Made by a program: the position numbers and the translations under genes. Below are positions 7,206 to 63,648 of a stretch of 64,000 nucleotides of DNA, in pieces. Source of the DNA: Subsaximicrobium wynnwilliamsii (GTDB lineage: Bacteria; Bacteroidota; Bacteroidia; Flavobacteriales; Flavobacteriaceae); NCBI RefSeq assembly GCF_007997225.1, contig NZ_VORM01000017.1:1-64000 (forward strand), written 5' to 3'. The notes below the pieces were generated by a model, which did not search any database, had not been told where the DNA came from, and was given only the letters and a program-made list of their open reading frames with translations. Position 1 is the first letter of the stretch; each line of letters begins with the position of its first letter.

Positions 7206-7240
7206 AAATTCAAAATTCGTCAATCGTAAATTCTTCAACT
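7206..7240 (+). repeat. Degenerate heptamer leader abutting a start codon
   Basis: Read in sevens this is AAATTCA, AAATTCG, TCAATCG, TAAATTC, TTCAACT, immediately followed by the ATG at 7241. Unit similarity is only moderate, but the register runs exactly to the start codon, as in other leaders of this window (rplR, infA, rpsK). Confidence 0.55.
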
Positions 7241-7753
7241 ATGCCTATCATCAAATCCATTAAAGACAAATCTCCACAAATCCCCAGCGATTGTTTTATT
7301 GCAGAAAATGCCACCATCATTGGCGATGTTACCTTGGGGAACCAATGCAGCGTTTGGTTCAATGCAGTGATTCGGGGGGATGTGCATTTCATCAAAATAG
7401 GCAATAAAGTCAATGTTCAAGACGGTGCGGTTATTCATGCGACCTATCAAAAATCGCCTACCACCATTGGTGACAACGTATCTATTGGGCATAATGCAAT
7501 TGTTCACGGGTGTACAATCCATGATAATGTGTTGATTGGGATGGGCAGTATCGTGATGGATGATTGCATCGTGGAAAGTAACAGCATCATTGCGGCGGGT
7601 GCGGTGGTTACAAAGAATACGGTGGTAGCGTCTGGAAGCATTTATGCGGGTGTCCCAGCCAAAAAGGTCAAGGATATTTCTGCGGAATTAATCTCAGGTG
7701 AAATCAACCGCATCGCCGATAATTATGTGGAATATAGCAGTTGGCTCAAATAA
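7241..7753 (+). CDS. Gamma-carbonic-anhydrase family hexapeptide-repeat protein
   Basis: 170 residues made of left-handed beta-helix hexapeptide repeats (ATIIGDVTLGNQCSVWF, NVSIGHNAIVHGCTI, NVLIGMGSIVMDDCIV). The three metal-binding histidines of the family are visible in GAVIHAT and IGHNAIVHGC. This is the YrdA/PaaY-like group of the gamma-class carbonic anhydrase fold, trimeric and cytoplasmic, with zinc or iron at subunit interfaces. Members may hydrate CO2 or act on CoA thioesters, and sequence alone does not decide. The start is the ATG at the end of a heptamer-like leader. A CTTCCGAAG palindrome follows 18 bases after the stop. Confidence 0.85.
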   Translation: MPIIKSIKDKSPQIPSDCFIAENATIIGDVTLGNQCSVWFNAVIRGDVHFIKIGNKVNVQDGAVIHATYQKSPTTIGDNVSIGHNAIVHGCTIHDNVLIGMGSIVMDDCIVESNSIIAAGAVVTKNTVVASGSIYAGVPAKKVKDISAELISGEINRIADNYVEYSSWLK

Positions 7754-7771
7754 TTCAGCTTCCGCGGAAGA

Positions 7772-7893
7772 CTTCCGAAGTATCTAAATGTGTTTTTGCT
7801 GTAGTGTTTTTCAGTAATTAATAAGGCATAGCATTTAGTTCTTTTTTGCTGGCCGTTTTTTATAGGGTCTCATGAAATCAAAGCCTTCCGAAG
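7772..7893. repeat. Pair of CTTCCGAAG palindromes
   Basis: CTTCCGAAG occurs at 7772-7780 and 7885-7893, 113 bases apart. The same 9-mer (either strand) occurs in intergenic DNA at 20810-20818, 20919-20927, 34698-34706 and 38787-38795, and only once was it noticed inside a gene (24059-24067). Four of the six intergenic copies lie within 40 bases after a stop codon. Confidence 0.6.
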
Positions 7894-7916
7894 CTTAGTT
7901 TCTGGAAATAGGTTTA

Positions 7917-8013
7917 AATCCCTCCAGAGCGTTTTAGTCCCCAAGGCATCCTCGAAATACAAAGAACATCTTTCAATTCATACCTTGTGGGCTTGCCCCG
8001 AGCTTATTGATTC
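7917..8013 (+). repeat. 97-base dispersed repeat, copy 1
   Basis: Matches 32347-32444 over its whole length with one indel and scattered substitutions. The last 65 bases (from CTCGAAATACAAAGAACATC to the end) are nearly identical. Internal short inverted repeats (such as GGGCTTGCCC and CTCG/CGAG pairs) give it a REP- or MITE-like look. No terminal target duplication was identified. Confidence 0.75.
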
Positions 8014-8126
8014 ACTTCAGTGCATTTTTATGCGTAGCGCTTAACTGTGAATGCCAAGTGTCTTCACACTGCCTACTGATCTAATAAGGTCATCTTTTAG
8101 GCTTGCCTTTCGCTTTGATAAACTCA

Positions 8127-8909
8127 CTAAAAATCCAGAACCTCTACAATGGCGTGATTGTTATCTAAGATATGACGTAAAACCTCCGTATTTGTATTGG
8201 TGTAAAAATGGTTTTTTGCAGTGACGCTAGTAGTATTGAAAAGACCGTATTGTTCTAAAACAGACTTGGTTTGTTTCGCAACCGCCCGGCCAGAATCGAT
8301 AATGGTCACTTCTTTTGGCAAAAGATTGGATAGCATGGGAATCAAATAGGGATAATGCGTACATCCCAAGACCAGATAATCAATATTGGCGGCAACCATA
8401 GGTTTGAGATAGCGTTCTAACAAAGCTTTCATTTCTATAGTGTCTGTTTTGCCAGCTTCAATAAGTGGCACAATACCGTCGCCCACTTGCTCAATGACGG
8501 CAATGTCCCGTTTGTACAAATCTGTTGTTTTATGAAACAGCGCGCTAGACAGGGTTCCTTTGGTGGCTAGAATGCCAATTGCCTTGGTTTTGGTGTTGAG
8601 GGCAGCAGGTTTTATGGCGGGTTCAATCCCAATAATAGGGACGCCATAGTTCAATCGTAAATAATCGATGGCATTGGTGGTAGCGGTATTACAAGCCACA
8701 ACAATAAGTTTACAATTGCGATGTAACAGCAGCTCTGTGTTTTTGATGCTGAGTTGTAAGATCTCATCCTGGCTTTTATTGCCGTAAGGTGCATTTTTGC
8801 TATCGGCGAGATAAATGGTATTCTCATGTGGTAAAAGTTCATGGATCTCTTTGAAGATCGACGTCCCTCCAATACCAGAATCAAATATGCCAATAGGTTG
8901 TGTGCTCAT
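8127..8909 (-). CDS. murI: Glutamate racemase
   Basis: A 260-residue cytoplasmic enzyme that interconverts L- and D-glutamate to supply D-Glu for peptidoglycan. The Asp/Glu racemase signatures are clear: FDSGIGG at 9-15, the first catalytic cysteine in ACNTATTNA (Cys73), and the second in LGCTHYP (Cys183) with His185. Length is normal. The ATG at 8909 gives the canonical N-terminus MSTQPIGIFDSG. It lies downstream of two Skp/OmpH chaperone genes on the same strand, a common Bacteroidota order that links wall and outer membrane synthesis. A terminator hairpin between it and the chaperones suggests partly separate transcription. Confidence 0.96.
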   Translation of the reverse strand: MSTQPIGIFDSGIGGTSIFKEIHELLPHENTIYLADSKNAPYGNKSQDEILQLSIKNTELLLHRNCKLIVVACNTATTNAIDYLRLNYGVPIIGIEPAIKPAALNTKTKAIGILATKGTLSSALFHKTTDLYKRDIAVIEQVGDGIVPLIEAGKTDTIEMKALLERYLKPMVAANIDYLVLGCTHYPYLIPMLSNLLPKEVTIIDSGRAVAKQTKSVLEQYGLFNTTSVTAKNHFYTNTNTEVLRHILDNNHAIVEVLDF

Positions 8910-9126
8910 ATCTTAAAAATAGGATGGTTGGTTGCCCAATAAAAATTCAAAACCACTTCGCTTGACTGAACTCAGTATTCGTTGTTTACTAGGGTAAATC
9001 CCTAGAACTAAGGGTAAAGGTCTAATGCTAACTCCTAGGTTTCAAGAGGGTTTATGAAACTAAAAATAGTTTCAATCGCAAACTAACGAATAGTGATTAG
9101 TTTTTCAGGTCATACTGGGCAAAAAT

Positions 9127-9157
9127 AAAAAAGCCACTCGTTAAAAGTGGCTTTTTT
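9127..9157 (-). terminator. Terminator after the OmpH/Skp gene pair
   Basis: AAAAAAGCCACT (9127-9138) pairs with AGTGGCTTTTTT (9146-9157) around a 7-base loop. Read on the minus strand it gives a stem followed by a T-rich tail, 21 bases after the stop of the short OmpH gene. It should end the long envelope operon before murI. The A/T symmetry makes it potentially bidirectional. Confidence 0.8.
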
Positions 9158-9177
9158 AAATATATTTTAGTCTGTAA

Positions 9178-9687
9178 TTAGAATCCTAATTCTTTTTTGA
9201 CATCTGCCATAAGGTCTTTGCCATCGGCTACCAAGACACCACCACCTTGGGTAGAGTCTAATACATATTGAATACCTTGAGCATTGGCTACTTTTTCAAT
9301 CGCAGCTTTTGCTTTTTCAAAGATAGGCTTGTAGAGCGCAGCTTCTTTACTACCAAGGTCTTCTTGTGCTTGACCTTGAAATTGACGAATGCCTTGTTCC
9401 ATTTGTTGAACTTCTTTAGATCTAGAAGTGTTTTCCTCTTCTGTTTTAGTATCAACTTCTGCTTGATACTGCTTGACCTTGTTTTGAATCTCAGTGGCCA
9501 TTTCCTTGATTTGTGCCTCGTAAGTTTTTGTCAATCTTTCGATTTCGGCTTGTGCAGTTTTCATTTCTGGCATGGCCTGCACTAATTCTGTTGTGTTTAT
9601 ATGTGCAATTTTACTTTGTGCTGTTGCAATGCTAGTTGTTCCAACAAATAATAGAGCTGTAAATAATAAGGTTTTGAAATGTTTCAT
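9178..9687 (-). CDS. Periplasmic chaperone, OmpH/Skp family (short paralog)
   Basis: 169 residues with a signal peptide (about 1-23, ending TATAQ) followed by the Skp body: a beta strand SKIAHINTTELVQAMPE, long charged helices (about 45-115) and a C-terminal strand IQYVLDSTQGGGVLVADG. Skp proteins are trimeric periplasmic holdases for unfolded outer membrane proteins on their way to BamA. It follows a longer OmpH paralog by 33 bases and lies in the same operon as bamA, which supports the role. The symbol is left blank because two paralogs share the locus. Confidence 0.92.
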   Translation of the reverse strand: MKHFKTLLFTALLFVGTTSIATAQSKIAHINTTELVQAMPEMKTAQAEIERLTKTYEAQIKEMATEIQNKVKQYQAEVDTKTEEENTSRSKEVQQMEQGIRQFQGQAQEDLGSKEAALYKPIFEKAKAAIEKVANAQGIQYVLDSTQGGGVLVADGKDLMADVKKELGF

Positions 9688-9720
9688 TTTTAAATTTGTT
9701 ACGTGTTATGATTATTGTTT

Positions 9721-10761
9721 TTAGTTAACCTGTTCGTCGGGCTCCTCTTCGTTTCTAGCGGCTTCCCGTTCTTCTTTAGCTTTTTTTCTAGCTTCTAAGA
9801 TTTTCTTTTTTCGCTCTTCCAACGCTTTTTTACGTTCTTCGCGATCTGTTAATTTCTCTTGCCTTTTTTCTTCTGCAAGTTGTTCTGGCGTTTTTGAAGT
9901 GGTTGCTTCTGTTGCGCCTGTGGCCTTAGTACTGTCTTCAACCACGGTGTTTCTTTCTACATCTGGACTTGCACTTTCCCCGCTTACACTGTCTCGTGCT
10001 GCTTTGGCCGCTGCCCGCTCATCCAAAATGCTTTGGCGTCTTGCTGCTGCTGCATCTTTGAGTGAATCACGACGTTTAAGACGTTCGGCATTGCGCTCAT
10101 CCATGGCAGCCTCACGAGCCGTTTGTCTTTCCTCCAAGACTTTTTCCCGCTCATCCATCGCTTCATTTATTTCTGGCACCACCTCTTCACGCTCGGCTTC
10201 CCTGCGCTCAGACCTTGAGGTCGCTTGGGTACGTTTGGCAGATCTTGTGATACTTCTAATGATCATTTCACTAATGTCATAACGCTCTGCTGAATAAAGC
10301 ATGACCACATCTGCTGATTTGTCAAAGATAAAATCATATTTTTTATTTTCAGCAATTTCCTGTACCGCCGCAAAAATTTGATCTTGAATGGGCTGAATAA
10401 GCTGTTGCTTTTGGATCATTAAATCGCCATTGGGCCCGAAACGTTTCTGCTGGTAGTCCAATATTTCAGCCTCCTCAAAGCCTATATCCTCTAAGCGCTC
10501 TTCATATAATTGCTGGGTCAACAAAACGCGTTCGCCGTTCAATTGCTTCTTTTTAGATTCAATTGTATTTAGGCGTTGCTCAATATCGGTTTTCCATTGT
10601 TGTACCTTTTGATCCAATTGTGTGTTGGCTTCGGTATATTCTGGTACATTTTCCAAGATATATTCGGTATCAATATAGCCAATTCGCACCCCTCTTTGCG
10701 CATTTGAAACAAAGCAGCTTAAACTTATTAAGGTCAATAAAAAAAGAACGTTGCGTTTCAT
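9721..10761 (-). CDS. OmpH/Skp family protein with long charged C-terminal extension
   Basis: 346 residues. A signal peptide (about 1-21, ending SNAQ) precedes an OmpH/Skp core (RGVRIGYIDTEYILENVPEY to about 165). A roughly 170-residue extension follows, dominated by Arg, Glu, Ala and Lys (ERREAEREEVVPEINEAMDE, EERKKKILEARKKAKEEREA), probably helical or disordered. The core is the normal chaperone; the extension is far longer than in E. coli Skp and may be variable and lineage-specific. It is encoded just downstream of bamA and directly before the short paralog, so the two may form mixed trimers (inference). Confidence 0.88.
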   Translation of the reverse strand: MKRNVLFLLTLISLSCFVSNAQRGVRIGYIDTEYILENVPEYTEANTQLDQKVQQWKTDIEQRLNTIESKKKQLNGERVLLTQQLYEERLEDIGFEEAEILDYQQKRFGPNGDLMIQKQQLIQPIQDQIFAAVQEIAENKKYDFIFDKSADVVMLYSAERYDISEMIIRSITRSAKRTQATSRSERREAEREEVVPEINEAMDEREKVLEERQTAREAAMDERNAERLKRRDSLKDAAAARRQSILDERAAAKAARDSVSGESASPDVERNTVVEDSTKATGATEATTSKTPEQLAEEKRQEKLTDREERKKALEERKKKILEARKKAKEEREAARNEEEPDEQVN

Positions 10762-10927
10762 CTGTTTTGTTTTATGGTTCGTTGAAATGATCTCAAAATT
10801 AAAATGACAGATTTAACATACGATTCCGTCATTGGGTTTCATTTTTCAAATTAACGAAATTTAATCTGAAAAATTTTAACACACCAAATAAATCGTTGTA
10901 AAGTACTTAGAAAATATCGTGCCAAAG

Positions 10928-13474
10928 TTAAAATTGCTGTCCAATGATGAAGTGTGTTTCCCAACCATTTTTCTGAACACCACCTGGTAAGGGATCAAAC
11001 CCATGTCCAAAATCAATACCTAGCAAGCCGAAGGCAGGCATAAATATTCTCAATCCAAATCCTGCGGAACGTTTTAACCTAAATGGGTCAAAATCCCTAA
11101 AACTATCAAAGGAGTTACCTGCTTCCAGAAACGTAAGACCATATATTTTTGCCGATGCTCCCAAGGTAATTGGATAGCGCAGCTCTAAAGAAAATTTGTT
11201 GTAAATGGTACCACCATCCTGCGAAGATAATGCTTGATTAGGATAACCTCTCAATTGGATAATCTCACGACCATCTAAAGCAAAATTGCCTAAGCCATCG
11301 CCACCAATAAAGAAGCGCTCAAATGGGATGATGCCACGATCTTGGTTATAAGCACCTAAGAAGCCAAATTCCATGCCCGATTTCAATACTAATTTATCTA
11401 CTGGATTGGTGTACCAATCGCCTTTGAATTTGACTTTATAAAATTCCAACCACTTGTAACGCTCTTGGTCAATTTCTCCAATCCTTGCCAGTTCATCTGG
11501 ATTTTGTGGGTTCAACTCATCGCGTTCTTCCTTTAAGGCCCCATAATCTGTTGAATTGAATAAAGAATAAGGAATGGATAATTTTGCACTTACAGAAAAA
11601 TTTGAACCTTGTGTAGGGTAAATAGGATCAGTTGCCGTATTGTTTCTCGTAAGACCTACGGTGTAAGAAAGGTTATTGGAGTAGCCATTCCCGAAGGTAA
11701 ACAAACCTGTATTATAATTTTTTAGGTCGTAATGTTGAAAACTCACGGCTTGAGACAATTGAAAATAATCATCTGGCTCTTTTAATCGTTTTGCAATACC
11801 AATCGATACCCCTGTGATGTTGAAACGTCGGTCTTTGTCGGCATCACGAGTTATTGGGTTAAATAAAAACTGTTTGGTGTGTGAAATGGAAGTCGTTAAT
11901 TGGGTTGGTCGCTTACCACCTAACCAAGGTTCAGAAAATGAGAAGCTATAGGTTTGGAAAAATCTTGAGGCTTGCAAACGCAGCGCCAAACTTTGACCAT
12001 CACCAGTGGGAATTGGTTTATAGGCTTCTTTCTTGAAAATATCTTTGAGTGCAAAGTTGTTGAATGATAATCCTAATGTACCAATGAACCCTCCACCACC
12101 GTAGCCACCTTGCAATTCAATTTGGCTTGAGCCTTTTTCCACTACTTGGTATTCAATATCGACCAAACCATCTTGGGTGTTGAAGTTTTTCATGTTTGGT
12201 GTGATTAATTGCGCATCAAAGAAGCCTAGTTGACCTAATTCCCTAATGGTTCTAATCACGTTGCTTTTACGATAGAGTTGGCCTGGTTTTGTACGCAGTT
12301 CACGATAAATCACATGGTCGTTTGTTTTTTCGTTACCAGAGACTGAAACTGCGTTGAAATACGCTGGTTTACCTTCAACAATTCTAATTTCAAGATCAAT
12401 GACGTTGCCTTCTGCACTTACCTCCACTGGATTGATAGAGGAGAAGAGGTAGCCCGAATCTTGATAAAGGTTAGTCAAATCTGCCGCATCTGGTTTGGTG
12501 TCGTCTGCAATGCGCTTGCGAAGTTCTACGCCATTATAGGTAGAGCCTCCCCTAATTCTCAATACGGATTGCAATTGCTGGTCTGTGTAAACACTGTTCC
12601 CCACGAAGGTGATTTTACCAAATTCATACTGTTCGCCTTCTTCAAGCTTTACGTGGACGTCAATGGTTTCGTTGTCTAAATAAGCAATGGAGTCTGATAA
12701 TATACGTGCATCACGATAGCCGTTCTCTTTGTAGACATCTATGAGGTTTACGAGATCTTCTTTAAAATCGGCCCTGATAAATTTAGAGCGTTTTAAAAAA
12801 TTGAAGAAGTTTTTTTCCTTGGTGTTTTTCATGGCCTTCTTTAATTTCTTGTCGGAAAGCTTTTCATTGCCATCAATGGCGATGTTCTGAATTTTTACCT
12901 TTTCACCTTTATCGATGTAGACTAACATGTCTACCCTTGCTTTTTGAATGGAGTCGTCGGTTACTTCTCTAGTGTCTACCCTAACCTTGGTATTTAAAAA
13001 ACCGTCTTTTTTATATTTGTTGGTCAAATAATTACGGGTGGTGGTTATCAGGTTTTCGGTCACCTTGATGCCTTTTGAAAGACTATTGTCTTTGATGATG
13101 GCTTCTTTTTTACCTTTTTTGACCCCTTCAATTTTGAGGTCTCGGAGTTCGGGTAGGTCAAAAAGGTTTATTTCCAAGAAGGCTTTGTCGCCTTCCACTT
13201 TTGTCAAATACACATCAATGCTGCTGAATAGGTTGGAGTCCCAAAGTTTTTTTATGGCGTTACTGATGTCTTCTCCAGGGATGACAATCTCTTCGCCTTT
13301 TTTAAGCCTAGAAAAAGAAATGATGGTGGTCTCGCTAAAATTGGTGTTACCAGTAACTTTAACGTCCTCAAGGATATATTTCTTGCCTTTATTGAAATTG
13401 GATTGTTGTGCGGTTGCTGCAAAGGCAATAAGGAGGGCAGTTACAGTTAGTAATGACTTAAAGTATGTTTTCAA
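10928..13474 (-). CDS. bamA: Outer membrane protein assembly factor BamA
   Basis: About 848 residues. A signal peptide (KTYFKSLLTVTALLIAFAAT), five POTRA domains (about 30-430, including GNTNFSETTI, GNEKLSDKKL, GNSVYTDQQL, GNEKTNDHVI) and a C-terminal Omp85 barrel (IELQGGYGGGGF to FGHGFDPLPG) ending in HFIIGQQF with a terminal Phe. It inserts beta-barrel proteins into the outer membrane. The open frame reaches a TTG at 13513 inside uppS; the TTG at 13474 is preferred because it gives a normal signal peptide right after the uppS stop (10-base gap). No ATG is available. The flanking Skp genes fit the role. Confidence 0.93.
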   Translation of the reverse strand: MKTYFKSLLTVTALLIAFAATAQQSNFNKGKKYILEDVKVTGNTNFSETTIISFSRLKKGEEIVIPGEDISNAIKKLWDSNLFSSIDVYLTKVEGDKAFLEINLFDLPELRDLKIEGVKKGKKEAIIKDNSLSKGIKVTENLITTTRNYLTNKYKKDGFLNTKVRVDTREVTDDSIQKARVDMLVYIDKGEKVKIQNIAIDGNEKLSDKKLKKAMKNTKEKNFFNFLKRSKFIRADFKEDLVNLIDVYKENGYRDARILSDSIAYLDNETIDVHVKLEEGEQYEFGKITFVGNSVYTDQQLQSVLRIRGGSTYNGVELRKRIADDTKPDAADLTNLYQDSGYLFSSINPVEVSAEGNVIDLEIRIVEGKPAYFNAVSVSGNEKTNDHVIYRELRTKPGQLYRKSNVIRTIRELGQLGFFDAQLITPNMKNFNTQDGLVDIEYQVVEKGSSQIELQGGYGGGGFIGTLGLSFNNFALKDIFKKEAYKPIPTGDGQSLALRLQASRFFQTYSFSFSEPWLGGKRPTQLTTSISHTKQFLFNPITRDADKDRRFNITGVSIGIAKRLKEPDDYFQLSQAVSFQHYDLKNYNTGLFTFGNGYSNNLSYTVGLTRNNTATDPIYPTQGSNFSVSAKLSIPYSLFNSTDYGALKEERDELNPQNPDELARIGEIDQERYKWLEFYKVKFKGDWYTNPVDKLVLKSGMEFGFLGAYNQDRGIIPFERFFIGGDGLGNFALDGREIIQLRGYPNQALSSQDGGTIYNKFSLELRYPITLGASAKIYGLTFLEAGNSFDSFRDFDPFRLKRSAGFGLRIFMPAFGLLGIDFGHGFDPLPGGVQKNGWETHFIIGQQF

Positions 13475-20065: not shown

Positions 20066-20066
20066 G

Positions 20067-32543: not shown

Positions 32544-33242
32544 ATGGCCGATAAACCTGTCTTTATTTCAATTAAAAATTGGTCACAGGATGATCGTCCT
32601 CGCGAGAAACTTCGCGATAAGGGAAAAGCCAATCTTAGTGATGCCGAATTGATCGCCATACTTTTGGGCACCGGCAGTAGAAGTGAAAGTGCCGTTAGTT
32701 TGAGCCAGCGCATACTGTCGAGTGTTGACAATAATTTAAACCAGTTGGGCAAGCTGTCCATAAAGCAACTCATGACCTTTAGGGGCATTGGTGAAGCGAA
32801 GGCGATCACAATTGTCGCTGCGATGGAGTTGGGCAGAAGACGTAGGGGGGAAGAAGCACTCGAAAAGATGAAAATCAGTTCAAGCACCTCGGTATTTGAA
32901 CTCATGCAGCCTATTATTGGCGAACTGCCGCACGAAGAATTTTGGATTGTCTACCTCAATAATTCCAATAAGGTGCTCCACAAAAATCAAGTGAGCAAAG
33001 GCGGTATCACAGGCACGCTGGTTGATGTGCGCCTGGTGCTCAAAAGCGCTTTGGAATTGGGTGCAGTAGGTTTGATCTTGGCACATAACCATCCTTCTGG
33101 CACCTTAAAACCTAGTACTGCCGATAAGGATCTTACCAAAAAACTGAAATTGGCTGCTGAAAGCTTGGATATAAAGGTCTTGGACCATCTCATTATTACC
33201 GAGAAAGCCTATTTCAGTTTTGCAGATGAGAACATCATGTAA
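32544..33242 (+). CDS. radC: RadC family protein (JAMM/MPN+ domain)
   Basis: 232 residues. The N-terminal UPF0758 helix-hairpin-helix part (NWSQDDRPREKLRDKGKANLSDAELIAILLG region, about 10-80) is followed by the JAMM domain, with the metal motif HNHPSGTLKPSTADKDLT starting near His181. The name is historical; the E. coli locus does not encode a proven repair protein and the peptidase-like domain has no established substrate. Length is typical. The upstream 10-base hairpin may control it. A 7-base-periodic tract follows its stop directly. Confidence 0.93.
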   Translation: MADKPVFISIKNWSQDDRPREKLRDKGKANLSDAELIAILLGTGSRSESAVSLSQRILSSVDNNLNQLGKLSIKQLMTFRGIGEAKAITIVAAMELGRRRRGEEALEKMKISSSTSVFELMQPIIGELPHEEFWIVYLNNSNKVLHKNQVSKGGITGTLVDVRLVLKSALELGAVGLILAHNHPSGTLKPSTADKDLTKKLKLAAESLDIKVLDHLIITEKAYFSFADENIM

Positions 33243-33290
33243 ATTTCCAAATTCCAAACTTGAAACCTCGGAACCAAATTTTAAATTCCG
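33242..33290 (+). repeat. Degenerate heptamer tract after radC
   Basis: Starting at the last base of the stop codon, the sequence reads in sevens as AATTTCC, AAATTCC, AAACTTG, AAACCTC, then a 6-base unit GGAACC, then AAATTTT, AAATTCC. Sequence conservation is moderate and there is one phase slip. Confidence 0.5.
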
Positions 33291-36373: not shown

Positions 36374-36554
36374 TTTTACTGGTTTTAGCTAGATCTATAT
36401 TATTTAGCGATCTTAAGCAGAAGTTGGTACTGGGCTCCTATTCGAAAATAAAACTAGGTTTGGGACCAATATTGGTCGGAATACATCCATAACAAAATCA
36501 GGTCTAATTCAGCTAGATTCATTCATCTCAATAGAATAGTTCTCTCAATACTTA

Positions 36555-36610
36555 ACAGACAAGACAACAGACAACAGACAACACAAAACACACAACACAC
36601 AACAGATAAC
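36555..36610 (+). repeat. 8-unit heptamer tract AGACAAC/ACACAAC
   Basis: Units are ACAGACA, AGACAAC x3, ACAAAAC, ACACAAC x2, AGATAAC, ending 3 bases before the rarA stop codon on the opposite strand. It lies at the 3' ends of two convergent genes, so here the tract is not a translation leader. Confidence 0.85.
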
Positions 36611-36612: not shown

Positions 36613-37893
36613 CTAGTACCCATATTTCTCCTTCCAACGCGCTTTTAAAAAATCACGTTGCGCTTGTTCTCTCGCGTTGTCTCCGGGTTCGTATAGTTTA
36701 GTGCTTTTTATGGCATCGGGTAGAAATTCGTGCGGTACAAAATTCTGCTCATAACGGTGTGCGTATTGGTAGTTATCGCCATATCCCAACTCCTTCATCA
36801 GTTTTGTTGGGGCATTTCTCAACGACAAGGGTACTGAGAGGTCTCCAGTTTGTTTTACCAATTGCTGTGCTTTGCCAATGGCTTCATAAGAGGCGTTGCT
36901 CTTGGCTGAAGTGGCCAAATAGGTCACACATTGGCTCAAGATGATTCGCGACTCTGGATAGCCAATGACCGAAACCGCTTGAAAGGCGTTATTCGCAATG
37001 ACCAAAGCCGTGGGATTGGCGTTTCCAATATCCTCACTTGCTAATATGAGTAAACGTCTTGCAATGAATTTCACATCCTCACCGCCTTCAATCATTCGTG
37101 CCAACCAATACACGGCAGCATTGGGGTCGCTTCCTCGAATTGATTTTATAAATGCCGAAATGATATCGTAATGCTGTTCTCCGGTTTTGTCATACCTAAC
37201 GGTGTTGCTCTGTATGCGTTTCGCAACTTCAGTATTGGTGATTACCACAGGGGTTTCTTCGGAATAGGAGGTCACGATCAGCTCAAAAAGGTTGAGCAGT
37301 TTTCTAGCGTCGCCACCAGAAAAACGGATTAAAGCCTCGGTTTCTTTAAGCGTTATCTTCCGTCTTGATAAAATGTCATCTTTTTCCATCGCACGTTTCA
37401 GTAGCGCTTCCAGATCGTCTTTTGAAAAGGAATTTAGGACGTAGACTTGACATCGTGAGAGTAGGGCAGGGATGACTTCAAAACTGGGGTTTTCAGTGGT
37501 GGCTCCTATGAGCGTGACCCAGCCTTTTTCCACAGCCTGTAAAAGCGAATCTTGTTGTGATTTGCTAAACCTATGGATCTCATCGATGAATAAAATAGGA
37601 TTCTTCGTGGTAAAGAGACCACCACTTTGTTTGGCTTTGTCAATGACTTCACGAATATCTTTTACGCCCGAGTTAATGGCGCTCAAGGTGTAAAATGGGC
37701 GTTTGGACTCATTGGCAACAATGTTTGCCAAGGTGGTCTTGCCAGTTCCTGGCGGTCCCCAAAAAATCATTGAGGCAATGACGCCTTGTTGCAACTGTTG
37801 CCTCAAAACACCCTTCTCGCCTATTAAATGATTCTGGCTTAGGTAGTCATCAAGAGTTTCTGGTCTTAAACGTTCTGCTAGGGGTGCGGTCAT
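36613..37893 (-). CDS. rarA: Replication-associated recombination protein A (RarA/MgsA)
   Basis: 426 residues. A clamp-loader-like AAA+ ATPase with Walker A GPPGTGKTT at 46-54, Walker B ILFIDEIHRFSKSQQD near 100-115, the sensor region LIGATTENPSFEVI, a helical lid (SGGDARKLLNLFEL) and the C-terminal tetramerisation part (ASEDIGNANP, YPESRIILSQ). It acts at stalled forks. The N-terminus MTAPLAERLRP fixes the start. The TAATTTTG box ends only 4 bases before the ATG, so the mRNA is probably leaderless. Confidence 0.95.
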   Translation of the reverse strand: MTAPLAERLRPETLDDYLSQNHLIGEKGVLRQQLQQGVIASMIFWGPPGTGKTTLANIVANESKRPFYTLSAINSGVKDIREVIDKAKQSGGLFTTKNPILFIDEIHRFSKSQQDSLLQAVEKGWVTLIGATTENPSFEVIPALLSRCQVYVLNSFSKDDLEALLKRAMEKDDILSRRKITLKETEALIRFSGGDARKLLNLFELIVTSYSEETPVVITNTEVAKRIQSNTVRYDKTGEQHYDIISAFIKSIRGSDPNAAVYWLARMIEGGEDVKFIARRLLILASEDIGNANPTALVIANNAFQAVSVIGYPESRIILSQCVTYLATSAKSNASYEAIGKAQQLVKQTGDLSVPLSLRNAPTKLMKELGYGDNYQYAHRYEQNFVPHEFLPDAIKSTKLYEPGDNAREQAQRDFLKARWKEKYGY

Positions 37894-48917: not shown

Positions 48918-48945
48918 AACAACTAACAACTAACAACTAAACACT
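48918..48945 (+). repeat. 4-unit heptamer tract AACAACT
   Basis: AACAACT x3 then AAACACT in exact 7-base register, in the 79-base gap between rpsL and rpsG, ending 12 bases before the rpsG ATG. Confidence 0.85.
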
Positions 48946-48957: not shown

Positions 48958-49434
48958 ATGAGAAAAAGAGCAGCAAAAAAGAGACCGCTTTTACCAGATC
49001 CACGATTTAACGATCAGTTAGTGACACGTTTTGTGAACATGATGATGTGGGACGGTAAGAAATCCGTTGCGTTTAAAGTATTTTACGATGCAATTGACAT
49101 TGTGGAATCCAAAAAAACCGATGAAGAGAAAACGGCGCTGGAAGTTTGGAAAGATGCCCTGTCTAACGTTATGCCTCACGTAGAAGTACGTAGTCGTAGA
49201 GTTGGTGGAGCAACGTTTCAAATCCCAATGCAGATTCGTCCAGACCGTAAAGTATCTACAGCCATGAAATGGTTGATTAGTTACTCAAGAAAAAGAAATG
49301 AAAAATCAATGCCCCAAAAATTGGCGGCCGAGATTATTGCAGCAGCTAAAGAAGAAGGCGCAGCTGTTAAGAAGCGAGTGGATACTCACCGAATGGCGGA
49401 AGCAAACAAAGCATTCTCACACTTTAGATTTTAA
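48958..49434 (+). CDS. rpsG: 30S ribosomal protein S7
   Basis: 158 residues with the S7 core ([53 protein letters not shown] and the C-terminal [15 protein letters not shown]). It organises the 3' major domain of 16S rRNA. Length is normal. It precedes fusA by 6 bases. Confidence 0.98.
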
Positions 49435-57607: not shown

Positions 57608-57609
57608 TT

Positions 57610-58161: not shown

Positions 58162-58164
58162 AAT

Positions 58165-58434: not shown

Positions 58435-58552
58435 ACCCGCGATTTTTCGCGAGTTAATATGTGATTGTTCACATATCAAAAAAAGTATAAACTGGTCTTA
58501 GGTTCGGTCTCGACGGTTCGAGATGGAAAACCATTACCGCAATTTAATATAA
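58435..58552 (+). promoter_or_regulatory. Three-hairpin gap between rpsN and rpsH
   Basis: CGCGATTTTTCGCG (58438-58451 region, right after the stop), ATATGTGA/TCACATAT (58457-58476, 8-base perfect stem, 4-base loop) and TCTCGA/TCGAGA (58508-58523, 6-base stem) follow one another in 118 bases. There is only a weak A-run and no T-run, so intrinsic termination is unlikely. The first hairpin, like that after rpsJ, starts within 4 bases of the stop codon and has CGCGA/TCGCG arms. Confidence 0.6.
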
Positions 58553-58951
58553 ATGAATACAGATCCAATTGCTGATTACTTAACAAGAATCAGAAACGCA
58601 GTGAAGGCCAACCACAGAGTGGTAGAGATTCCTGCATCCAATTTAAAAAAAGAAATAACCAAAATTTTATTCGATCAGGGATATATTTTGAGTTACAAAT
58701 TTGTTGATTCCACTGCACAGGGCTCCATAAAGATCGCCTTAAAGTACAACAAAGACACCAAAGAATCTGTCATTAAAAAGATTCAAAGAATAAGTAAGCC
58801 AGGTTTACGTAAGTATGCAGGCTCTAACGAAATGCCACGAATTCTTAACGGTCTTGGTATTGCAATCGTTTCTACATCTCATGGTGTCATTACCGGTAAG
58901 CAAGCTCAGAGAGATAATTTAGGTGGTGAGGTCATTTGCTACGTTTACTAA
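58553..58951 (+). CDS. rpsH: 30S ribosomal protein S8
   Basis: 132 residues with DPIADYLTRIRNAVKANHR, the conserved RISKPGLRKYAGSNEMPRIL and IVSTSHGVITGKQAQRDNLG ending ICYVY. In E. coli S8 represses the spc operon by binding rplE-adjacent mRNA; here the hairpin gap directly upstream is a candidate site (inference). Confidence 0.98.
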   Translation: MNTDPIADYLTRIRNAVKANHRVVEIPASNLKKEITKILFDQGYILSYKFVDSTAQGSIKIALKYNKDTKESVIKKIQRISKPGLRKYAGSNEMPRILNGLGIAIVSTSHGVITGKQAQRDNLGGEVICYVY

Positions 58952-58969
58952 TCATAAAGAAGAAAGAAC

Positions 58970-59512
58970 ATGTCAAGAATAGGTAATAACCCAGTAGCGA
59001 TTCCAGAAGGAGTTACGGTTGATATAAAAGAAAACAACATTACAGTTAAAGGGAAATTGGGCGAATTGACGCAAGATTTCGATACTGTGACTATAAAAGT
59101 TGAAGACGGTAACATCTTAGTGAGACGCGCAGGGGATAGTAAAGAAGATAAATCCAAGCACGGTTTGTATAGATCGTTGATGGAAAATATGATTGAAGGT
59201 GTATCAAACGGCTGGACTAAGCAGTTAGAATTGGTAGGTGTTGGTTATAGAGCATCCTGTCAAGGTCAAAAGTTAGACATGGCCTTAGGTTTTTCACACA
59301 ACATCGTTCTCAATGTAGCTCCAGAAGTGAAAGTGGAGACCATTTCAGAAAAAGGTAAGAATCCGGTTATAAAACTAACCTCTCACGATAAACAATTGGT
59401 AGGCCAAGTAGCTGCGAAGATTCGCGGTTTTAGAAGACCAGAACCTTACAAAGGAAAAGGTATCAAGTTTGTTGGTGAAATATTAAGAAGAAAAGCAGGT
59501 AAATCTGCATAA
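58970..59512 (+). CDS. rplF: 50S ribosomal protein L6
   Basis: 180 residues with SRIGNNPVAIPEGVTVDIKE, the L6 duplicated fold, and the conserved C-terminal FRRPEPYKGKGIKFVGEIL. Contacts the sarcin-ricin loop. Normal length. Confidence 0.98.
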   Translation: MSRIGNNPVAIPEGVTVDIKENNITVKGKLGELTQDFDTVTIKVEDGNILVRRAGDSKEDKSKHGLYRSLMENMIEGVSNGWTKQLELVGVGYRASCQGQKLDMALGFSHNIVLNVAPEVKVETISEKGKNPVIKLTSHDKQLVGQVAAKIRGFRRPEPYKGKGIKFVGEILRRKAGKSA

Positions 59513-59557
59513 ATGAATTTACGATGTTAGATTTAAGAGTTACGAAACAAACACAGT

Positions 59558-59599
59558 AAATCATAAATCATAAATCGTTAATCATAAATCGTAAATCAA
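59558..59599 (+). repeat. 6-unit heptamer leader before rplR
   Basis: Units are AAATCAT x2, AAATCGT, TAATCAT, AAATCGT, AAATCAA in exact register, ending one base before the rplR ATG. It fills half of the 88-base rplF-rplR gap. Confidence 0.9.
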
Positions 59600-59600
59600 A

Positions 59601-59957
59601 ATGGCATTAACAAAGAACGAAAAAAGACTAAGAATTAAAAGCAGAATTCGCAAGGTAGTTTCTGGTACAGAAGCAAGACCACGACTGGCTGTTTTTAGAA
59701 GCAATAAAGAAATTTATGCTCAAGTTGTAGATGACGTCACAGGTGTAACCTTGGCTGCGGCATCTTCAAGAGATAAAGATATTGCTTCAGATAAAGGAAA
59801 TAAAACTGATAAAGCTACATTGGTTGGTAAAGCTGTTGCTGAAAGAGCAATTAAAGCGGGCGTCAACACCATTTCTTTTGATAGAGGCGGATATCAGTAT
59901 CACGGTAGAGTAAAATCATTAGCTGAAGGAGCTAGAGAAGGAGGACTTAAATTCTAA
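59601..59957 (+). CDS. rplR: 50S ribosomal protein L18
   Basis: 118 residues with [23 protein letters not shown] (read in parts), the 5S rRNA-binding core [18 protein letters not shown] and the ending [20 protein letters not shown]. The heptamer tract ends one base before its ATG. Confidence 0.97.
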
Positions 59958-59963
59958 GACATT

Positions 59964-60488
59964 ATGTATCATAAATATAAAAACGCAGAATTAGTAAAAC
60001 CAAGTGGAATAGATCTTAAGGATCGACTTATTGGTGTACAAAGAGTTACAAAAGTAACTAAAGGTGGTCGTGCTTTCGGTTTTTCAGCTATTGTAGTGGT
60101 AGGTGATGAAGCTGGTGTCGTGGGTCAAGGTCTAGGTAAATCTAAAGATGTGGCAACGGCAATCGCTAAGGCGGTAGAAGATGCTAAAAAGAACCTAGTT
60201 AGGATTCCTATTATAAAGGGAACTTTACCACACGAACAAAAAGGTAAGTATGGTGGTGCTCGTGTAAACATTATTCCGGCAGCGCCTGGTACAGGTGTTA
60301 TCGCTGGTGGTGCTGTGAGAACAGTGTTAGAATCGGTGGGTGTTCATGACGTATTGTCAAAATCCCAAGGATCTTCTAACCCTCATAACGTTGTAAAAGC
60401 AACCTTTGACGCCTTGTTGCAATTGAGAAGCGCCGCTTCTGTTGCTAAAGAAAGAGGGATTTCGCTTGATAAAGTGTTTAACGGATAA
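59964..60488 (+). CDS. rpsE: 30S ribosomal protein S5
   Basis: 174 residues with the dsRNA-binding-like domain ([40 protein letters not shown]) and the C-terminal [21 protein letters not shown] helicase-like ring partner of S3 and S4 at mRNA entry. Six bases after rplR. Confidence 0.98.
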
Positions 60489-60575
60489 CTATTAGATCTT
60501 AGTCTTTAGTTGGAGATTCGGTATAATAATATCAATACCACTCCTCACTAATAACGATCACTAAAAACCAAGAAA

Positions 60576-60761
60576 ATGGCAAAAAAAATAAAAGTAACCA
60601 AAGTAAGAAGTGCAATTAACCGTGCCCAGACCCAAAAGAGGACATTAGAATCTCTAGGTTTGAACAAAATTGGTCAGGTTAAAGTACATGATGCTTCCCC
60701 GAGTGTTCTTGGGATGGTTAATAAAGTTTCACATTTAGTTTCTGTAGAAGAAATGAGCTAA
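60576..60761 (+). CDS. rpmD: 50S ribosomal protein L30
   Basis: 61 residues with KIKVTKVRSAINRAQTQKRT, ESLGLNKIGQVKVHDASPSV and MVNKVSHLVSVEEM, the short bacterial L30. An 87-base gap precedes it, ending in a loosely heptameric A/C-rich leader. Confidence 0.96.
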   Translation: MAKKIKVTKVRSAINRAQTQKRTLESLGLNKIGQVKVHDASPSVLGMVNKVSHLVSVEEMS

Positions 60762-60858
60762 ATATATTTGCGGAATCTTTTTACGCTTTAGGCCAAAGTG
60801 AATACATTTAGCCTAACGGAAAATAATTCCTTCAGATAAAACAAAACAATAAGATACA

Positions 60859-61311
60859 ATGGACTTAAGTAATTTAAAACCAGCCGAAGGTTCCAATAAA
60901 AATCAAGGCAAAAGAATAGGTAGAGGACAAGGCTCTGGAAAAGGTGGTACTGCAACTCGCGGTCACAATGGAGCTAAATCGCGTTCTGGCTATTCCAAGA
61001 AAGTAGGTTTTGAAGGTGGTCAAATGCCACTTCAAAGACGTGTGCCTAAATTTGGGTTCACGAATAGAAACCGTGTTGTCTATCAAGGGGTAAACTTGGA
61101 TAAGTTGCAACAATTGGCAGATGACAAGAAGATTAGCGATGTAGTGGATTTTCAAACTTTGGTTGAATTAGGTTTGGCTGGAAAGAATGAAATGGTAAAA
61201 ATTCTTGGACGTGGCGAATTAAAATCAACCTTAAAGGTAACTGCTCATAAATTTACTGCTTCAGCAAAAGCTGCAATTGAAGCTGCAGGAGGAGAAGTTG
61301 TAACTTTATAA
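60859..61311 (+). CDS. rplO: 50S ribosomal protein L15
   Basis: 150 residues. The glycine-rich N-terminal tail (GRGQGSGKGGTATRGHNGAKSR in parts), the VGFEGGQMPLQRRVPKFGF motif and the C-terminal AHKFTASAKAAIEAAGGEVV. Assembly protein of the 50S. Ninety-seven bases after rpmD; secY follows after 13. Confidence 0.97.
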   Translation: MDLSNLKPAEGSNKNQGKRIGRGQGSGKGGTATRGHNGAKSRSGYSKKVGFEGGQMPLQRRVPKFGFTNRNRVVYQGVNLDKLQQLADDKKISDVVDFQTLVELGLAGKNEMVKILGRGELKSTLKVTAHKFTASAKAAIEAAGGEVVTL

Positions 61312-61324
61312 GATCTTTATAAGT

Positions 61325-62677
61325 ATGAAATTTATAGATACATTAAAAAATGTTTGGAAAATTACTGAACTGAAAGACAGAATCATACTAACACTTGGTC
61401 TGCTTTTGGTGTATCGTTTTGGTGCGCAGGTGGTTTTACCAGGGATTGATGCAAGTCAATTAGGAGGTTTAGCTCAAGGTACAGATCAAGGGATATTGGG
61501 TATTCTCAATATGTTTACTGGAGGTGCCTTTGCCAACGCTTCGGTATTTGCCTTAGGTATCATGCCTTATATCTCTGCATCCATTGTAGTGCAGTTAATG
61601 GGAATTGCGATTCCCTACCTGCAAAAACTGCAAAAAGAAGGTGCCAGCGGACAAAAGAAAATCACTCAGATTACACGATGGTTGACCATCATTATCTGTT
61701 TATTCCAGGCTCCTGGGTATTTGGCGAGTTTACAACCAGCATTTGGTATACCAACTTCGGCCTTTTTATTGGGTACTGGACCAACATTTTACATCTCTGG
61801 GGTTATCATTTTGGTAACAGGAACTATTTTTGCAATGTGGTTGGGTGAGAAAATTACCGATAAAGGTATTGGTAATGGTATCTCTTTATTGATCATGGTA
61901 GGAATTATAGCGACCTTACCTCAATCATTCATCCAAAATGCTGCATCCCGTTTAGATGGTGGTGGCAATGGAGGTCTAATGATGATTTTAATTGAGTTGG
62001 TGGTTTGGTTCGTGATTATTATGGCATCTGTTTTGTTAGTAATGGCAGTGCGTAAAATTGCTGTGCAATACGCAAGACGTACGGCCTCTGGGGGTTATGA
62101 GAAAAACGTGTTTGGATCGCGACAGTTCCTTCCGTTGAAATTGAATGCTTCTGGTGTAATGCCAATTATCTTTGCTCAAGCAATTATGTTCGTACCCAGC
62201 TTAATCGGAAAATCCTTTGGATCTTCCAGTGAAGTAGGGCAATGGATTCAAGCTCAGTTTACAGATATATTTGGTTTGTGGTATAATGTGGTGTTTGCGT
62301 TATTGATAATCATCTTTACGTATTTCTATACAGCAATCACGGTGCCTACCAATAAAATGGCAGATGATCTCAAACGAAGTGGTGGTTTTATTCCTGGAAT
62401 TAGACCAGGATCTGAAACTTCAGAATACTTAGATAAAATAATGTCTCAAATTACATTGCCTGGATCTATTTTCTTGGCGCTTATTGCTGTGTTCCCAGCA
62501 ATTATAGTTAAGCTTATGGATGTACAAGCAGGCTGGGCATTGTTCTTTGGCGGTACTTCTTTATTGATTATGGTTGGTGTTGCTATCGATACGATGCAAC
62601 AAATCAACTCGTATTTGTTGAATAAACATTATGATGGTTTGATGAAGACCGGCAAGAATAGAAAGGCAGTGGCCTAA
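61325..62677 (+). CDS. secY: Protein translocase subunit SecY
   Basis: 450 residues with ten predicted membrane helices, the plug region (GIDASQLGGLAQGTDQGILG), ALGIMPYISASIVVQLM, the loop QYARRTASGGYEKNVFGSRQ, LKLNASGVMPIIFAQAIMF and the C-terminal LLNKHYDGLMKTGK. Central channel of the Sec system, and the usual spc-operon position after rplO. adk and map, often next, are absent here; infA follows after 101 bases. Confidence 0.97.
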   Translation: MKFIDTLKNVWKITELKDRIILTLGLLLVYRFGAQVVLPGIDASQLGGLAQGTDQGILGILNMFTGGAFANASVFALGIMPYISASIVVQLMGIAIPYLQKLQKEGASGQKKITQITRWLTIIICLFQAPGYLASLQPAFGIPTSAFLLGTGPTFYISGVIILVTGTIFAMWLGEKITDKGIGNGISLLIMVGIIATLPQSFIQNAASRLDGGGNGGLMMILIELVVWFVIIMASVLLVMAVRKIAVQYARRTASGGYEKNVFGSRQFLPLKLNASGVMPIIFAQAIMFVPSLIGKSFGSSSEVGQWIQAQFTDIFGLWYNVVFALLIIIFTYFYTAITVPTNKMADDLKRSGGFIPGIRPGSETSEYLDKIMSQITLPGSIFLALIAVFPAIIVKLMDVQAGWALFFGGTSLLIMVGVAIDTMQQINSYLLNKHYDGLMKTGKNRKAVA

Positions 62678-62743
62678 AATTAGACAATAGTCCACAGGAT
62701 TTGGATATTAGAGATATTTAGCATATAATATAAAAACGTAGTT

Positions 62744-62778
62744 CTAATAACTAAATACGAAGAACTAAAAACTAAAAT
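62744..62778 (+). repeat. 5-unit heptamer leader before infA
   Basis: CTAATAA, CTAAATA, CGAAGAA, CTAAAAA, CTAAAAT in exact 7-base register, ending directly at the infA ATG. Confidence 0.85.
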
Positions 62779-62994
62779 ATGGCAAAACAAGCAGCAATTG
62801 AACAGGACGGATCCATCATCGAAGCATTATCAAATGCGATGTTCCGTGTTGAATTAGAGAATGGTCACATTGTGACCGCACATATTTCGGGTAAAATGCG
62901 GATGCATTACATTAAGTTGTTACCTGGAGATAAAGTAAAATTGGAAATGAGCCCTTATGATTTAACTAAGGCTCGCATAACCTATAGATACTAG
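62779..62994 (+). CDS. infA: Translation initiation factor IF-1
   Basis: 71 residues with [40 protein letters not shown] and [20 protein letters not shown], the S1-like OB fold. It blocks the A site during initiation. Its leader is a heptamer tract that runs right up to the ATG. Confidence 0.97.
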
Positions 62995-63049
62995 TAAGGT
63001 GCCGTCGAAAGATAGCCCGAAGGTGTCATAACATTAAATAAGAGGACAG

Positions 63050-63166
63050 ATGAAAGTAAGAGCATCAGTTAAAAAGAGAAGTGTTGATTGTAAATTGGTC
63101 CGCAGAAAAGGCAGACTGTACGTCATTAACAAAAAGAATCCTAGATTCAAACAAAGACAAGGTTAA
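63050..63166 (+). CDS. rpmJ: 50S ribosomal protein L36 (zinc-free type)
   Basis: 38 residues, read directly: [20 protein letters not shown] then [18 protein letters not shown] and a TAA. The usual three Cys and one His that bind zinc are reduced to a single Cys14; the others read Ser, Asn and Phe. This is a zinc-independent L36. Three bases before rpsM. Confidence 0.95.
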
Positions 63167-63169
63167 ATT

Positions 63170-63544
63170 ATGGCAAGAATTGCAGGTGTAGACATACCCA
63201 AACAAAAAAGAGGAGTGATCTCGTTGACATATATCTACGGGGTAGGTAATAGTAGATCACAAGAAATTTTGGCAACCGCTAAAGTTGACGAAAGCATCAA
63301 GGTAGAAGATTGGACAGACGAGCAAATTGGAGCAATCCGTGAGGCTGTTGGGACTTTTAAAATTGAAGGTGAATTACGTTCTGAAACCCAATTGAACATT
63401 AAGCGATTAATGGATATTGGTTGTTACAGAGGGATTCGTCATAGAGCTGGTCTTCCTTTGAGAGGTCAAAGAACCAAAAACAACTCTAGAACCAGAAAAG
63501 GTAGAAGAAAAACTGTTGCCAACAAGAAAAAGGCAACTAAATAA
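63170..63544 (+). CDS. rpsM: 30S ribosomal protein S13
   Basis: 124 residues with [33 protein letters not shown] and the C-terminal [20 protein letters not shown]. It contacts the P-site tRNA and the B1 bridges. It begins the alpha-operon part, 3 bases after rpmJ. Confidence 0.98.
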
Positions 63545-63613
63545 TAATTAAGACAGTAGTCATTAGTAATTAGAAGTTAGCCGAATCTGTTTGAAATTGA
63601 AAGGTTTAGGATT

Positions 63614-63648
63614 CTAACAACTAAAAACTAACACTATAAACTAGAAAC
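63614..63648 (+). repeat. 5-unit heptamer leader before rpsK
   Basis: CTAACAA, CTAAAAA, CTAACAC, TATAAAC, TAGAAAC in exact register, ending one base before the rpsK ATG. A weaker TTAGTAA/TTAGAAG run lies further upstream, near 63563. Confidence 0.8.

What the first reader, a model, noticed from the sequence alone, without database searches (positions are those of the whole stretch)
7206..63648. Length-locked heptamer tracts with different unit sequences at many intergenic sites
Besides CAGAGAA (6173) and TTCAAGG (7101), 7-base periodicity appears at 33242-33290, 36555-36610 (AGACAAC/ACACAAC), 48918-48945 (AACAACT), 59558-59599 (AAATCAT), 62744-62778 (CTAAAAA), 63614-63648 and weakly at 7206 and 17394. 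The unit sequence is different at each place but the length is always seven. Slippage expansion would preserve any period; a shared seven suggests a mechanism with a built-in 7-base measure, for example a polymerase or repair footprint, or selection for a 7-base pattern in RNA. Heptanucleotide tandem repeats are known from some cyanobacteria; I know of no explanation for this group.
Basis: partly seen in the sequence, partly recalled or inferred. Interest (0 to 1): 0.8.

Follow-up and report, generated by a model that had tools for sequence, protein, structure and literature searches.

The report
Seven-base repeats at gene edges
The DNA between genes in this marine flavobacterium is rich in short tandem repeats that are mostly seven bases long though their sequences differ; they seem to arise on the spot and change in seven-base steps, and in related genomes they tend to run with the G-rich strand pointing away from the neighbouring gene, which is not yet explained.

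Summary
Eight of ten named places are significant (7206 marginal, 17394 not). In a 641-kb sample of this Psychroserpens genome, intergenic DNA holds 109 heptamer arrays against 0.4 in shuffles, 27 hexamers and 0-2 at periods 5, 8, 9, 10; the 109 use 57 distinct units. Five genus mates have about 12 times fewer per kb. The arrays look local: none of 4,284 variant 28-mers is shared between stretches, one spacer carries different heptamers in different species, and duplicated segments differ by gaps of 7, 14, 21 (16, 8, 3) more than 5, 6, 8, 9 (3, 6, 3, 0). Best explanation: tandem gain and loss with a preferred 7-base step in weakly constrained DNA. Heptamer dominance and a polymerase footprint are in print (Mrazek 2007, seen only as cited). 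Less expected: in other genomes, edge arrays read G-rich outward from the nearest ORF edge, start or stop (21 of 24; other periods show no bias). Here it is weaker (29 of 40; 12 of 18 outside stretches I had picked, not significant). Published Xanthomonas data, as I read them, fit. The cause of seven, of the polarity and of the excess is not shown.

The parts
6172..6281 (+). heptamer array ACAGAGA/ACAGATA, 15.7 copies, 49 nt after the stop of 3966-6122 (TPR-type protein) and before the LytTR-type response regulator 6303-7100
   Evidence: variant units occur in a block
7101..7145 (+). heptamer array TTCAAGG, 6.4 copies, starting directly after the response-regulator stop codon; G-rich strand reads outward from the ORF
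   Evidence: the same spacer in other species carries CTAACAA, CAAACAA or CACTAAC heptamers, or none
7206..7240 (+). weak heptad-like stretch before the start of the gamma carbonic anhydrase-like gene 7241-7753
   Evidence: p=0.028 best of lags 4-10; marginal
   Evidence: p=0.34
33242..33290 (+). weak repeat after the stop of 32544-33242; lag 7 and lag 8 equal
   Evidence: lag 7 0.52, lag 8 0.51, p=0.010
36554..36610 (-). heptamer array (AACAGAC/ACACAAC on +; outward strand GTCTGTT/GTTGTGT) abutting the stop of the RarA-like ATPase gene 36613-37893 (-), in a convergent spacer
48918..48940 (+). heptamer array AACAACT in the rpsL-rpsG spacer, 17 nt before the rpsG start at 48958
59557..59602 (+). 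heptad array TAAATCA/TAAATCG reaching the rplR start at 59601 (AATC core, other bases vary)
62744..62778 (+). imperfect CTAAAAA heptads ending at the infA start codon (62779)
63614..63649 (+). imperfect CTAAAAA/CTAACAA heptads ending at the start codon (63650) of the gene after rpsM, rpsK by position and protein start (recalled, not searched)

Best explanation
These are locally born tandem repeats. Short stretches of non-coding DNA are duplicated, and copies are gained and lost, by a slippage-type event whose preferred step is seven bases; point changes in one unit are copied into its neighbours, so the unit drifts along an array and differs from place to place. The arrays survive where DNA is least constrained: behind stop codons, between convergent genes, and in A/C-rich leaders. 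The window's genome has far more of them than the genus mates sampled. Shown here: period preference, signs of local origin, seven-base copy-number differences between duplicated segments, the distribution. Inferred: that the event is replication or repair slippage, and that seven comes from the polymerase. The outward-G polarity at ORF edges is seen in other genomes and is weaker here; I think it partly reflects selection (A/C-rich leaders) and partly an unknown strand bias of the event.
For: Period: 81 heptamer arrays against 18, 1 and 0 at 6, 8 and 9 in unpicked stretches; in 120 family genomes the core AATC occurs 4 times at 7-base spacing in 48, at 8 in 13 (8 of these by AATC tetranucleotide runs), at 6 in 11; CTAA 57, 14, 8. 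Steps: in 30 pairs of duplicated intergenic segments, gaps of 7, 14, 21, 28 occur 16, 8, 3, 1 times, gaps of 5, 6, 8, 9 occur 3, 6, 3, 0 times; of 18 gaps of at least 4 that are tandem copies of their neighbour, 13 are 7 or 14 long. Local birth: 57 units in 109 arrays, 0 of 4,284 variant 28-mers shared between stretches; of 67 spacers measured behind the same response regulator, 4 carry heptamers, with three or four different units, and none has an array scoring 10 or more at periods 5, 6, 8, 9 or 10. Weak constraint: 1.84 loci per kb between convergent genes, 0.72 co-directional, 0.31 divergent (picked stretches included). Rarity in genus mates: 4 arrays in 61 kb intergenic of five species.
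Against: In the same alignments gaps of 1, 2 and 4 bases occur 52, 19 and 11 times, so 7 is the preferred repeat step but not the commonest indel. Slippage alone does not explain why edge arrays in other genomes read G-rich outward in 21 of 24 cases, nor arrays with a fixed 4-base core and changing other bases, one of them nearly identical in two species. MutS1 is intact and Y-family polymerases are as in 10 of 12 genus mates, so no repair loss explains the excess. One further family genome (G379) has 12 hexamers against 9 heptamers. No strain-level data were available to see a step happen.
Confidence: 0.6

Rival explanations
1. Break-end extension. A broken end in a spacer is extended at its 3' end by a polymerase that repeatedly slips back about seven bases and re-primes on a 3-4-base core, adding G/T-rich units much as a telomere is extended; two such ends are then joined. 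This would give G-rich heptads pointing outward from both ORF edges whatever the gene direction, a fixed core with free bases between, and gradual drift.
For: Other genomes (15, 2, 80 loci): edge heptamers G-rich outward 21 of 24, p=2.8e-4; arrays of period 8, 9-13 and 15-20 show none (4:2, 2:4, 11:8). Spacer halves: left G>C 20 of 22, right C>G 19 of 21. Stop-edge arrays oppose local composition (18:2 against 515:796). In the 6 spacers with a G-type array at the left and a C-type array at the right edge, the two units differ at 2-4 of 7 positions at best rotation. Conserved phases tend to be adjacent (with caveats). Rehm 2015 (PMC4692102, sections 10-11): Xanthomonas GGGAATC repeats lie on average 28 nt from the 5' neighbouring ORF and 160 nt from the downstream one, on either strand relative to the genes, with 70-75 convergent pairs per genome; I read 5' as relative to the G-rich strand.
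Against: In the unpicked part of this genome the rule holds in only 12 of 18 (p=0.24), and other periods show it here too. No enzyme is known or found; no reverse transcriptase domain (RVT_1) matched in this genome. Array ends could not be used to tell extension from duplication. Small numbers; some loci are orthologous and some stretches were placed on heptamer hits, so the cases are not fully independent.
Confidence: 0.1
2. Selected RNA or DNA element. Heptads are kept because a protein (for example S1, a cold-shock protein, or a tandem DNA-binder) reads a 7-base pattern in leaders and 3' regions.
For: Tracts reach the start codons of rplR, infA and the gene after rpsM and lie 17 nt before rpsG in the window. 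AATCNNN arrays with unlike NNN stand just before starts in several genera. One leader has the same heptads in two species and a slightly changed version in a third. MacGregor 2015 proposed translational regulation for TAACTGA (abstract).
Against: Leaders of 1,727 genes in other genomes show no lag-7 excess (0.3133 against 0.3144 at 6 and 0.3128 at 8). The same leader in related species carries quite different sequences. Units share no sequence.
Confidence: 0.15
3. A dispersed mobile or REP-like element whose copies happen to contain 7-base periodicity.
For: In the unnamed genus g146 a string of roughly 40-100 bases made of GATT then AATC heptads recurs at many places.
Against: In the sample of the window's genome no variant string is shared between stretches. 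Y1 transposase domains do not go with heptad abundance in 120 genomes (medians 3 and 2, p=0.27). Units differ.
Confidence: 0.05
4. The excess in this genome comes from a changed repair background, for example two extra MutS-core proteins lacking the mismatch-binding domain.
For: This genome has 5 MutS-family matches, each of the 12 genus mates searched has 3; the two that I take as extra have domain V, one also domain III, and no match to MutS domain I.
Against: Only a presence difference in 13 genomes; other heptamer-rich genomes were not examined for it; MutS1 itself is intact.
Confidence: 0.06

Closest known systems
Heptanucleotide long simple sequence repeats of prokaryotes (Mrazek et al. 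2007, seen only as cited in PMC4679880 and PMC4692102)
   Same: Heptamers dominate long repeats; a 7-nt polymerase contact proposed as cause
   Different: Here many different units within one genome, seven-base differences between duplicated segments, and an ORF-edge polarity in related genomes
TAACTGA direct repeats of marine Beggiatoaceae, cyanobacteria and five Bacteroidetes (MacGregor 2015, PMC4679880)
   Same: Seven bases, intergenic, mostly just before start codons; in Flexibacter litoralis 12 of 14 sets are forward before a start and one is reversed just after a stop, i.e. one orientation relative to the ORF edge; other heptamers noted beside them in Gramella forsetii and A. sublithincola
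   Different: One unit; it has equal G and C, so the G-rich rule itself cannot be judged on it; no TAACTGA doublet in my sample of this genome
GGGAATC and GGGGA(C/T)T repeats of Xanthomonas and Nostoc (Rehm 2015, PMC4692102)
   Same: Seven bases with a conserved core, mostly intergenic; in Xanthomonas close to the 5' ORF and often in convergent pairs
   Different: G-quadruplex runs; only 1 of 109 arrays here has a G4 consensus; few inverted pairs in Nostoc
Heptamer-derived satellites, e.g. (GATAGRA)n of Chloroflexus aurantiacus (PMC6749651, passages)
   Same: Bacterial satellite families derived from heptamers and hexamers
   Different: A single species-specific family, read by the authors as probably transposed

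Membership tests
Bacterial heptanucleotide simple sequence repeats | tandem units of seven well above chance | tested here: met
   109 arrays against 0.4 in shuffles
Bacterial heptanucleotide simple sequence repeats | mainly non-coding | tested here: met
   109 intergenic, 4 in called genes
Bacterial heptanucleotide simple sequence repeats | copy number changes by whole units | tested here: met
   between duplicated segments of this genome; between strains not testable
TAACTGA repeats | unit TAACTGA repeated directly | tested here: not met
   0 doublets in the 641-kb sample
TAACTGA repeats | within tens of bases before start codons | tested here: inconclusive
   true for 4 window tracts, but 66 of 95 array loci of this genome lie nearer a stop codon
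G-quadruplex heptamers of Xanthomonas/Nostoc | four G-tracts | tested here: not met
   1 of 109 arrays
Phase-variable contingency loci | length polymorphism switches a neighbouring gene | not testable with these tools
   one genome per species held
REP elements moved by RAYT transposases | dispersed copies of one sequence | tested here: not met
   0 of 4,284 variant 28-mers shared in this genome's sample; dispersed strings were seen in genus g146, other genera were not examined for them
REP elements moved by RAYT transposases | go with a Y1 transposase | tested here: not met
   no association in 120 genomes

The most novel reading that the evidence does not exclude
Bacterial heptad arrays are made by a telomere-like process: 3' ends exposed by breaks in spacers are extended by reiterative seven-base slip-and-reprime synthesis of G/T-rich units and then joined, so that a spacer tends to read G-rich units inward from both flanking ORFs; the signature is seen in Bacteroidota and, from published data as I read them, in Xanthomonas.
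Probability: 0.1. Interest if true: 0.9.

Novelty: new variant of a known kind. Interest (0 to 1): 0.6.

Why it matters
A period that stays at seven while the sequence changes is a trace of how a replication or repair enzyme steps. A genome with roughly one heptamer array per kilobase of spacer, in many different sequences, is a good place to measure that step. The outward-G polarity at ORF edges, if it survives whole-genome tests, is hard to get from transcription direction alone and would tie separately described repeats (Bacteroidota, Xanthomonas) to one process. For annotators it is a warning that leaders and 3' regions in these bacteria can be repeat-born rather than regulatory.

Tried and rejected
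Gene calls are from my own ORF/codon script, not a standard caller; it misplaces some starts (rpsG) and truncates some acidic tails, which inflates the hexamer count.

Contiguity of conserved phases: the count is inflated by array edges and by scanning from the left, so I do not rest on it; one search is affected by duplicated blocks. Kept only as a hint.

A general heptad signal in all leaders: rejected, no lag-7 excess in 1,727 leaders of other genomes. Palindrome as the reason for paired arrays: not supported in the 6 spacers with both arms. Reverse transcriptase, Y-family polymerase number, MutS1 loss, Y1 transposase as causes: no support. The E. coli control (one 50-kb stretch, 3.8 kb intergenic, 0 arrays at periods 4-12) is too small to mean much. 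G345, chosen for many AATC matches, is poor in perfect arrays (3 in 27.4 kb).

Results against the polarity: own genome 29 of 40 overall but 12 of 18 without the picked stretches (p=0.24); in the own genome other periods show it too (hexamers 12:1, periods 9-13 9:0, 15-20 13:0), probably in part coding tails, so the claim rests on the other genomes. One search did not filter out arrays of a smaller period. Start edges in the own genome are 3:2. The own stop-edge count 26:6 includes stretches picked at TTCAAGG hits. Family-wide AATC loci (29 of 30 read): 14 obey, 4 break, 8 lie over 60 nt from an edge, 3 are inside ORFs. Opposite strings were GATT-then-AATC in 20 neighbouring pairs and the reverse in 4, which I ascribe to tandem clusters in L299 and L300; those loci were chosen from hit lists.

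Some stretches of G029, G037 and G039 were placed on TTCAAGG hits, and one of G345 on an AATC hit, and so favour heptamers. In one search I gave 77 of 80 loci plus the window; 11 gave no spacer, and in about 11 of the 67 measured the next ORF is not the carbonic anhydrase.
Full report
What was checked. The window (64,000 bases, 39.5% G+C) is part of contig C42 of a 4.90-Mb, 132-contig assembly. Eight of the ten named places are significant; at 33242 lag 7 is no better than lag 8, 7206 is marginal and 17394 is not significant.

Genome sample. Intergenic DNA in 641 kb of this genome has lag-7 self-identity of 0.309 against 0.279 at 5 and 8, with echoes at 14, 21 and 28. Arrays: 109 at period 7, 27 at 6, 0-3 at each other period from 4 to 13, against shuffled means of 0.2-1.4. 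Leaving out the window and five stretches that I had chosen at TTCAAGG hits, 81 heptamer arrays remain in 99.2 kb, 18 hexamer, 1 octamer; 2.5% of these intergenic bases lie in heptamer arrays. Some spacers are long fields of heptads whose unit changes step by step. In called genes period 7 is rare (4) and periods 6, 12, 15, 18 are commoner (25, 9, 8, 6).

Relatives. Five genus mates have 4 heptamer arrays in 61 kb of intergenic DNA, ten more genomes of the family and order 12 in 95 kb (some stretches of three of them placed on heptamer hits), two further family genomes 12 in 64 kb, and 80 syntenic loci of Flavobacteriaceae and kin 9 in 178.5 kb. Even there seven tends to lead among short periods: the counts at 5, 6, 8, 9 are 2, 1, 3, 1 against 16, 0, 1, 3, 1 against 9 (there periods 20 and 21 have 8 and 13); the exception is G379, with 12 hexamers against 9 heptamers. 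Core searches agree: of the same 120 family genomes, 48 have AATC four times at 7-base spacing, 13 at 8, 11 at 6; for CTAA 57, 14 and 8. Of 397 family genomes 154 have the AATC heptads, of 148 of the phylum 49 (the window's genome counted in both), with large differences inside one genus.

Local birth and seven-base steps. Of 67 spacers measured behind the same response regulator, four carry arrays: TTCAAGG here, CTAACAA in P. mesophilus (L151), CAAACAA in L152 and CACTAAC in L158 (L151 and L152 may share an origin because their flanks match); no array scoring 10 or more occurs there at periods 5, 6, 8, 9 or 10. In this genome 57 distinct units make up 109 arrays, and none of 4,284 28-mers of intermediate repetitiveness is shared between stretches. 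Thirty pairs of duplicated intergenic segments differ by gaps of 7 (16 times), 14 (8), 21 (3) and 28 (1), against 5 (3), 6 (6), 8 (3) and 9 (0); gaps of 1, 2 and 4 occur 52, 19 and 11 times. This is the most direct evidence for gain and loss of whole heptamers.

Where they lie. Density is 1.84 loci per kb between convergent genes, 0.72 co-directional, 0.31 divergent; in convergent spacers 18 of 39 arrays lie within 30 nt of a stop codon where 9.3 (s.d. 2.4) are expected; both counts include the picked stretches. In the window four tracts stand in ribosomal-operon spacers: they reach the start codons of rplR, infA and the gene after rpsM and end 17 nt before rpsG.

Polarity. Read outward from the nearest ORF edge, arrays tend to be G-rich (GGTTCAA, GATTNNN, GTTAGTG, TTCAGTC), so the sense strand is G/T-rich behind stops and A/C-rich before starts. 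In other genomes 21 of 24 edge heptamers obey (p=2.8e-4) while arrays of period 8, 9-13 and 15-20 do not (4:2, 2:4, 11:8); spacer halves are 20:2 and 2:19, spacers without arrays 714:555 and 687:615. Stop-edge arrays run against the local composition (others 18:2 against 515:796; here 26:6 against 141:156). In this genome 29 of 40 edge heptamers obey, but only 12 of 18 in unpicked stretches, and other periods show it too, so I do not claim the rule from this genome alone. In an unnamed genus (g146) dispersed strings run GATT heptads then AATC heptads across the spacer. Published data: Xanthomonas GGGAATC repeats are on average 28 nt from the 5' neighbouring ORF and 160 nt from the downstream one, on either strand relative to the genes, often in convergent pairs (PMC4692102, sections 10-11 read); I read 5' as relative to the G-rich strand. 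In Flexibacter litoralis 12 of 14 TAACTGA sets are forward before a start and one is reversed after a stop (PMC4679880, section 12 read); that unit has equal G and C, so it shows a fixed orientation, not the G-rich rule.

Core and variable bases. Many AATC arrays keep AATC every seven bases while the other three change. In own-genome arrays mismatches are unevenly spread over the seven phases (mean chi-square 10.2 against 6 expected, 73 arrays) and conserved phases are adjacent, but shared ancestry of units inflates this.

Causes looked for. MutS1 is intact; Y-family polymerase domains number two as in 10 of 12 genus mates; no RVT_1 domain matched in this genome; Y1 transposases do not go with heptads. 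This genome has two more MutS-family matches than each of the 12 genus mates searched; the two that I take as extra have no match to MutS domain I: a lead, not a cause.

Prior work. Searches of the paper library gave MacGregor 2015 (abstract, passages and section 12), Rehm 2015 (passages and sections 10-11), a 2019 survey of prokaryote satellites (PMC6749651, passages), a 2025 survey of short tandem repeats (PMC12699852, passages) and Baez 2019 on flavobacterial translation starts (PMC6847099, passages). The heptamer excess and the polymerase-footprint idea are in print (Mrazek 2007, seen only through citations). In what I read I did not find the ORF-edge polarity stated as a rule, nor a heptamer-rich Psychroserpens; most subscription papers are not held, so this is not proof.

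Verdict. A confirmed and strong case of a known kind of repeat, with a probable seven-base mutational step, plus an unexplained polarity in related genomes that deserves a whole-genome test.

Noticed in passing
G000:C55:41926-42720 (L314:3090-4757) and G000:C20:20514-21191 (L315:2423-4273): Two MutS-core proteins (domain V, one with domain III, no match to domain I) that seem to be extra: 5 MutS-family matches here against 3 in each of the 12 genus mates searched.
   Followed up: partly
L045:1-125 (G000:C56:1-125): A contig begins inside a perfect TAACCTC heptamer array of at least 125 bases; long arrays may break this assembly, so the longest ones may be undercounted.
   Followed up: no
L294-L313, e.g. 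L294:316-393; genus g146: A dispersed intergenic element of GATT heptads followed by AATC heptads, often filling the spacer between two open frames; it behaves like a repeat family, unlike the local arrays of the window's genome.
   Followed up: partly
L316:4840-5630 (G000:C45): A spacer near mutS that, by eye, is built of about five repeats of roughly 160 bases, each mixing heptamers (GATTGCT, GATTAAC) with hexamers (TTCAAG) in varying copy number.
   Followed up: partly
L263, L266, L267, L268, L281 (leader of a hemB-like gene, name recalled, in genus g146): The same leader carries AATC heptads, AACT heptads, TTTAAAC-type repeats or a palindrome in different species, so leader sequence turns over quickly while heptad style recurs.
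   Followed up: partly
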